This document shows positions 42,612 to 42,845 of a stretch of DNA of 64,000 nt, piece by piece. Under the pieces are notes generated by a model that saw only the letters and a list, made by a program, of their open reading frames with translations, had not been told where the DNA came from and did not search any database. Source of the stretch: a bacterium (lineage in GTDB: Bacteria; Cyanobacteriota; Vampirovibrionia; Vampirovibrionales; Vampirovibrionaceae); the NCBI GenBank assembly GCA_030429585.1, contig JAUIEU010000001.1, positions 987,994-1,051,993 on the forward strand. Reading direction: 5' to 3'. Position numbers and translations under genes: made by a program. Within the stretch, counting starts at the first letter, position 1. Each line of letters starts with the position of its first letter.

Positions 42612-42845
42612 AGGGAGAAGCGGCTGGAGCCGGTGCGGGGTGTACAATGCGGAACGCATCACACCCCAGCAGACCACTCTGCGGGTGAGCATTGCCCAAA
42701 ATACGAACCAACGGGCAAGCGCAGCCGCATGTTGGAAGGCGAACAGCAAGCGTCGTGGTTACCTTCCAACCCATTGGGAGGGTTTGGGAACACCCTGTTC
42801 CCAATGGGGGTGACGGGGGTTAGCCCCGTCAAAACGAAAACTACC
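42612..42845 (+). ncRNA. Copy 1 of a repeated intergenic element with a predicted multi-branch RNA fold (omegaRNA/HEARO-like or novel); strand inferred
   Basis: GCGGCTG(42620-42626)/CAGCCGC(42722-42728) closing stem; GGGGTGT/ACACCCC with inner ATGCG/CGCAT; GTTGGAAGG/CCTTCCAAC; GGGAACA-ccc-TGTTCCC; GACGGGG/CCCCGTC. Second copy at 54222-54455 with compensatory changes. Confidence 0.7.

What the first reader, a model, noticed from the sequence alone, without database searches (positions are those of the whole stretch)
42612..42845. Structured repeat RNA element, copy 1: covarying multi-branch fold between convergent genes
Seen directly: a GC-rich intergenic block after the envC-like gene folds as a closing stem (GCGGCTG/CAGCCGC) around GGGGTGT-aca-ATGCG..CGCAT-ACACCCC and TTGCCC/GGGCAA, then GTTGGAAGG..CCTTCCAAC, GGGAACA-ccc-TGTTCCC and GACGGGG-gttag-CCCCGTC. 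Copy 2 (54222-54455) preserves each main helix with changed sequence: GGGAACA/TGTTCCC becomes GGAGACA/TGTCTCC, GACGGGG/CCCCGTC becomes GGAGAGG/CCTCTCC, and GTTGGAAGG/CCTTCCAAC becomes CGTTGG/CTAACG. The unpaired blocks AGCAAGCGT, GCAGACCA and CACCCTG are conserved. Conserved structure with compensatory changes is strong evidence for a functional RNA. Inference: ~210 nt size, standalone genomic dispersion and a variable 5' flank suggest an IscB-associated omegaRNA (HEARO class) acting in trans, or a novel class.
Basis: partly seen in the sequence, partly recalled or inferred. Interest (0 to 1): 0.88.

Follow-up and report, generated by a model that had tools for sequence, protein, structure and literature searches.

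The report
Old mobile structured RNA at gene ends
The two copies in this window belong to a family of about 27 dispersed, roughly 220-base folded sequences that sit just behind genes in this bacterium; relatives throughout its order keep the same fold with different sequence, and in one related genus the fold rides inside a small jumping element, so this is a new, unusually well-structured member of a known kind of bacterial repeat and not a guide RNA of an IscB-type nuclease.

Summary
The element (42617-42839, second copy 54225-54447) has 27 copies in the 2.2 Mb genome. Covariation is strong: 96.3% of pair cells are paired, 19 of 57 pairs are compensated, and 0/500 shuffles match. With homologues from another genus, 41 of 57 pairs are compensated. 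Rfam has no match. The IscB/HEARO reading fails: no IscB, TnpB or Y1 transposase was found in the genome. The family is confined to one order: 12 of 19 genomes, against 0 of 79 others in the class. In genome G012 of a second family the same fold lies inside a ~310 bp unit with terminal inverted repeats, ~9-10 bp target duplications and 99% identical copies: a MITE. In the window's genome the copies are old (closest pair 88%), lack such ends, lie 19-76 nt downstream of a same-strand stop codon in 21 of 27 cases, and keep their pairing on terminal branches (16 compensated doubles against 0.8 expected). Best reading: a mobile-derived structured repeat retained as a gene-3'-end RNA element in a lineage without a recognisable Rho. 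The function is inferred.

The parts
42617..42839 (+). Structured repeat, copy 1 (whole element as covered by covariance model R1)
   Evidence: 218 bits; 68 nt after the stop of the envC-like gene
42620..42751 (+). 5' domain: multibranch junction closed by GC-G-GCUG / CAGC-AA-GC (42620-42626 with 42744-42751), containing the two hairpins below
   Evidence: covariation (helices 1, 2)
42634..42671 (+). Hairpin 2: UGCGGGGUGU / ACACCCCAGCA with inner AUGCG..CGCAU
42674..42735 (+). Hairpin 3: (C)CAC-U-CUGCGG ... CCGCAUGUUGG with the nearly invariant core GAGCAUUGCC...GGCAAGCGCAGCCGC
42784..42804 (+). 3' hairpin A: UUGGGAACA-ccc-UGUUCCCAA
   Evidence: 5 of 9 pairs compensated
42812..42830 (+). 3' hairpin B: GACGGGG..CCCCGUC, followed by an A-rich tail (no U-tract)
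54225..54447 (+). Structured repeat, copy 2; 30 nt after the stop of the MBL-fold-like gene, convergent with the queF-like gene
   Evidence: (230 bits)
41349..42548 (+). Upstream gene of copy 1 (envC/M23-peptidase-like; name from the sequence, not tested)
53565..54194 (+). Upstream gene of copy 2 (209 aa, metallo-beta-lactamase-fold-like; name from the sequence, not tested)

Best explanation
The element is one of 27 copies of a mobile-derived, structure-conserved repeat. Shown: a ~220-nt fold (a multibranch 5' domain with two arms, then two or three G/C-rich hairpins) is maintained by compensatory changes across genera of two families, and in one genus it is carried by a MITE with ~22-26 bp inverted ends and ~9-10 bp target duplications. 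Shown for the window's genome: copies are old, have no recognisable ends or target duplications, sit in sense orientation just behind unrelated genes and keep their base pairs on terminal branches. Inferred: the ancestor spread as a non-autonomous transposon; in this lineage surviving copies were kept as part of the 3' untranslated region of the preceding gene. There the RNA fold blocks 3' exonucleases and insulates the gene from read-through and from the convergent neighbour, in a lineage in which no Rho was recognised.
For: Copies: 27. Covariation; G012 homologues 97.2% paired against at most 94.1% in shuffles, although their count of compensated pairs (10) lies within the shuffled range (mean 7.5, maximum 12). 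G-U exceeds A-C on the + strand, 35:12, p=0.001, pointing to RNA of that strand. Position: 21 of 27 lie 19-76 nt after a same-strand stop; codirectional spacers 9 sense: 0 antisense. 13 of 24 convergent spacers >=100 nt hold a copy against 10 of 151 others, p=1e-7, in stretches chosen around copies. Constraint after the copies separated: terminal-branch breaks 28 against 57 expected (minimum 50 in 1000), compensated doubles 16 against 0.8 (maximum 4), paired sites 0.04 against 0.12 substitutions per site. Mobility in G012. No Rho over the curated cut-off in any of 11 family genomes; the matches cover only profile positions ~150-391. Literature: MITEs beside genes are transcribed and alter mRNA stability (PMC3733652); bcr repeats lie in UTRs (PMC3446304).
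Against: No transcription data. No direct evidence that the own-genome copies were ever mobile: no inverted ends or target duplications. Terminal branches may include time spent in different master lineages, so one search does not strictly prove selection at each site. In G006 the homologous 3' module lies behind genes in the opposite orientation (11 of 11 codirectional) and in G003 orientation is mixed, so a strand-specific role is not general. Canonical terminators are lacking at element-bearing gene ends (0 of 21) but also at most other ends (150 of 166), so one search does not show a terminator role.
Confidence: 0.55

Rival explanations
1. Purely selfish or neutral MITE-type repeat: the fold is needed only for the element's own spread or toleration, and the bias to gene ends reflects where insertions do least harm.
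For: TIRs, target duplications and 99% identical copies in G012; no shared positions among the sampled loci of two congeneric species apart from one possible; no shared gene function upstream in the own genome.
Against: Own-genome copies are old, yet pairs are kept and compensated on terminal branches; harm avoidance alone does not explain 9:0 sense orientation in codirectional spacers or 0:11 in G006.
Confidence: 0.3
2. IscB/IsrB omegaRNA (HEARO) or another guide RNA acting in trans with a nuclease.
For: Size, dispersion and a variable 5' flank.
Against: No Rfam HEARO match at E<=10; no IscB in G000 or G003; no TnpB in the own genome. PF14239 was also silent, but in all controls too, so that search alone says nothing. 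The flank is the unrelated 3' region of a different gene at each copy.
Confidence: 0.03
3. REP/BIME-type palindromes mobilised by a RAYT (Y1 tyrosine transposase).
For: Dispersed palindromes at gene 3' ends; GGAG-like runs before hairpins.
Against: No Y1_Tnp domain in any of 11 family genomes with ringing controls; ~220 nt multibranch unit rather than a 20-40 bp palindrome; the G012 relatives have TIRs and target duplications.
Confidence: 0.03
4. Independent small-RNA genes (a multicopy trans-acting sRNA family) that happen to lie after genes.
For: Strong structure, G-U bias on the + strand, near-invariant core GGCAAGCGCAGCCGC.
Against: No promoter-like match appeared at the element start in the one consensus scan made around the window copies (a weak test); tight coupling to the upstream stop codon; the G006 module is in the opposite orientation.
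Confidence: 0.09

Closest known systems
Bacillus cereus bcr repeats (bcr1-bcr3 MITE-like; bcr10/bcr18 with conserved RNA structure), PMC3446304
   Same: Dispersed intergenic repeats, some MITE-like, some with conserved RNA structure, often in UTRs
   Different: Sequence similarity to bcr was not tested; here one family unites a covarying multibranch fold with a MITE state in one genus and a TIR-less, gene-end-bound state in another
ERIC, YPAL, NEMIS, RUP, Nezha: bacterial MITEs that fold and affect mRNA stability (background of PMC3733652)
   Same: 70-300 bp, no coding capacity, TIRs (in G012), inserted next to genes, robust secondary structure
   Different: Those are described there as degenerate IS-like units with TIRs; this one has a multibranch core conserved across an order, independent of the TIRs
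REP/BIME/REPIN palindromes (PMC3116915, PMC3733652)
   Same: Behind genes, palindromic, many copies
   Different: No RAYT in the family genomes; size, architecture and target duplications differ
HEARO / IscB omegaRNA (Rfam)
   Same: ~200-nt structured RNA, multicopy, standalone copies
   Different: No Rfam match, no IscB, no guide-like flank

Membership tests
HEARO / IscB omegaRNA | match to the Rfam covariance model | tested here: not met
HEARO / IscB omegaRNA | IscB-family protein in the genome | tested here: not met
   no match in G000 or G003 (the model rang in controls and relatives, but in relatives only over its HNH part, and nowhere over the cut-off)
TnpB omegaRNA | TnpB/Cas12f-like protein in the genome | tested here: not met
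   controls ring in 6 genomes
REP/RAYT | Y1 (IS200/IS605-type) transposase | tested here: not met
   none in 11 genomes, controls ring
MITE | terminal inverted repeats, window's genome | tested here: not met
   same-copy score 9.4 against 9.0 (sd 1.65) between copies
MITE | target-site duplication, window's genome | tested here: not met
   same-copy direct repeat 5.6 nt against 5.7 between copies
MITE | terminal inverted repeats and target duplication, homologues in G012 | tested here: met
MITE | autonomous partner with the same ends | tested here: inconclusive
   the only long TIR pair holds an IS630 inserted inside a copy; no other transposase seen between such ends
Conserved structured RNA | compensatory base changes above controls | tested here: met
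Conserved structured RNA | transcription | not testable with these tools
   no RNA data at hand; only the G-U bias
Intrinsic terminator | hairpin followed by a U-tract | tested here: not met
   A-rich tail, 0 of 21 element-bearing ends

The most novel reading that the evidence does not exclude
An order-wide structured RNA module was spread by a DNA transposon and then taken into service as a sense-oriented 3'-end element of unrelated genes: an exonuclease barrier and insulator, or an unusual terminator without a U-tract, in a lineage that lacks Rho.
Probability: 0.3. Interest if true: 0.7.

Novelty: new variant of a known kind. Interest (0 to 1): 0.52.

Why it matters
Most bacterial MITEs and REPs are known as simple palindromes. 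This family has a multibranch fold conserved through an order, a genus where it is recently mobile and a genus where old copies keep their base pairs and sit in one orientation behind genes. That makes it possible to test when and how a mobile structured repeat becomes part of host transcripts. It also bears on how gene ends, especially convergent ones, are defined where no Rho is recognisable.

Tried and rejected
HEARO/IscB, TnpB (22), RAYT (35) and other Rfam families. PF14239 was uninformative because its controls were silent. A 24-base exact core pattern in GTDB contigs gave three hits; the one read (L031) shows only the pattern and no element, and the other two were not examined. Viral contigs gave none. 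blastn over 59 relatives found only two marginal hits outside the own genome; the homologues needed covariance models. Inverted ends and target duplications in the own genome: none. Shared neighbouring genes between genera: only isolated similarities, no conserved position. Canonical terminators: not decisive. An autonomous partner in G012: only a nested IS630. Naming the organism: one search gave no names, so taxonomy stays open; the own genome's genus could not be compared at orthologous loci because no congeneric genome turned up among the relatives. Paper searches gave comparators or nothing specific.

Full report
What is there. The finding's block is real. Its limits, from the alignment of copies, are 42617-42839 and 54225-54447, both on the + strand. 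In the 2.21 Mb genome, blastn finds about 25 copies and a covariance model built from 20 of them finds 27. These include shortened ones in which the 5' end is fused to the 3' part (2019550, 1099392), and a further fragment lies at 1272966. Copies are 67-88% identical to each other, so there has been no recent burst here.

Structure. The consensus is: a 5' domain closed by GC-G-GCUG / CAGC-AA-GC and GCC/GGC; inside it hairpin 2 (UGCGGGGUGU/ACACCCCAGCA) and hairpin 3 (CCAAUCAGCGG...GAGCAUUGCC...GGCAAGCGCAGCCGCUGUUGG); then a variable linker, a small weak hairpin, hairpin A (UUGGGAACA/UGUUCCCAA) and hairpin B (GACGGGG/CCCCGUC) followed by an A-rich tail (43% A). 96.3% of pair cells are paired against 91.9% in shuffles and 41-46% in slid controls, and 19 pairs have double changes against 6.7 in shuffles, with 0 of 500 shuffles as high.

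Homologues. The model finds 23 weaker matches in G003, another genus of the family. Their alignment shows the same plan with different sequence (closing stem CUGUGGG/CCCACAG, arms GUUGUUGGGU/ACCCAACAAC and UCUGCGG/CCGCAG). On the joint alignment of 37 sequences 41 of 57 pairs are compensated and 93.5% of cells are paired, against 73.9% in shuffles and 39-47% in slid controls. That alignment is fitted to the model and leans towards it. A joint model reaches G012 and G014 in another family of the order, 25 and 20 copies, with the recognisable core GGUGCG...AGCAGACCAAU. Over 98 genomes of the class, matches occur in 12 of 19 genomes of the order and none of the other 79, with stricter filters. 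G006 and its congeners share mainly the 3' module of two hairpins.

Mobility. In G012 three copies are 96-99% identical over ~320 bp, and identity stops at TTACGCTTCCTAACCAAATTGCGGAA on one side and TTCCGCATTATTGTTGTGAAGCGTAA on the other, imperfect inverted repeats. L182 has different ends, CTTACCACCTGACA/TGTCAGGTGGTAAG. A search for the first kind of end found 40 in G012 and 20 in G014 with none in the reversed control. Many are paired ~283 bp apart, flanked by 9-12 nt direct repeats in six of 13 units; mean same-copy repeat 7.5 nt against 5.0 (sd 1.35) between copies. One 1.4 kb unit contains an IS630-type transposase (PF01710, PF13358) inserted at a TA inside hairpin 3, so it is a passenger, not the partner. 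No transposase between such ends was found. A 221 bp unit with the same ends lacks the core (L220).

The window's genome. Here no inverted ends or target duplications are seen. Position is strongly patterned: convergent 15, codirectional with the element in sense 9, in antisense 0, divergent 3; 21 of 27 begin 19-76 nt after a same-strand stop codon (my gene calls are from a simple codon-usage caller). 9:0 has p=0.004 (my calculation; one search printed the test for 10:0 after a miscount, and the notebook entry carries the same miscount). In a 464 kb sample chosen around copies, 13 of 24 convergent spacers of at least 100 nt hold a copy, against 8 of 102 codirectional and 2 of 49 divergent. Several 'empty' convergent spacers are probably missed genes, which would make the true share higher. 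The upstream proteins look unrelated (by eye).

Selection. On a tree of 20 copies most length is terminal (2.42 of 2.86). There, paired sites change three times more slowly than unpaired ones, breaks are half of expectation (28 against 57, minimum 50 of 1000 simulations) and compensated double changes are 16 against 0.8. Among pairs that are Watson-Crick in at least 75% of copies, G-U exceeds A-C 16:7 here and 19:5 in G003 (combined p=0.001), as expected for RNA of the + strand. The fold itself was optimised on that strand, which gives a mild bias.

Orientation in relatives. In G006 the homologous module lies 15-49 nt from a gene end in most sampled copies but in the opposite orientation (codirectional 11:0 antisense), and its reverse strand ends in a canonical hairpin plus T-run (seen in the sequences). 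In G003 orientation is mixed, and several copies follow an intrinsic terminator of the upstream gene (seen in the flanks). The constant feature is thus closeness to gene 3' ends, not one strand.

Mechanism. I favour a mobile-derived repeat whose RNA fold forms part of the 3' end of the upstream transcript and protects or insulates it. Shown: position, structure, constraint, mobility of the relatives. Inferred: transcription, protection, insulation. No protein over the Rho cut-off exists in the 11 family genomes; the sub-threshold matches cover only profile positions ~150-391 and are, I infer, related ATPases. This makes gene-end structures plausible helpers, but it is circumstantial. Only 16 of 166 other gene ends have a strict U-tract terminator, so absence at element-bearing ends (0 of 21) says little.

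Known kinds. The nearest are bacterial MITEs and structured intergenic repeats: bcr repeats (PMC3446304), ERIC/YPAL/NEMIS/RUP/Nezha and REPs (PMC3733652), stem-loop families (PMC2267715). Not HEARO, not TnpB RNA, not RAYT-REP, by the tests in the table. Novelty: new family, new variant of a known kind.

Noticed in passing
genome G000: 559333, 708353, 1038730, 1097823, 1283965, 1495964, 1497182, 1760283, 2142852: A second dispersed repeat family, ~110 nt, one long imperfect palindrome (GCGTTATAACTTGCATTTTCGGCGTTAAAT...), in codirectional and divergent spacers; its - strand folds better. The copies at 1038730 and nearby lie inside the window (about 50.7 kb).
   Followed up: partly
L212:1060-2080 (G012): IS630-type element with the transposase in two overlapping frames, inserted at a TA inside hairpin 3 of a copy.
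   Followed up: partly
L220 (G012:C1:1114587-1114807): A 221 bp unit with the same inverted ends as the G012 MITE but a different interior without the RNA core.
   Followed up: no
L024, L025 (genome 2019550 and 1099392): Two copies share the same internal deletion joining TAGCGGCTG to TTGG..AGGCGCACAGCAAGCG; both big arms are gone but the 3' hairpins stay.
   Followed up: no
all 11 family genomes: No Rho over the curated cut-off.
   Followed up: partly
L111-L130 (G006): The homologous 3' module is behind genes in the opposite orientation to the window's genome.
   Followed up: partly
L095, L097, L098, L099, L103, L104 (G003): Copies follow an intrinsic terminator of the upstream gene, often with GCGTAA ~25-30 nt before the element.
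   Followed up: no
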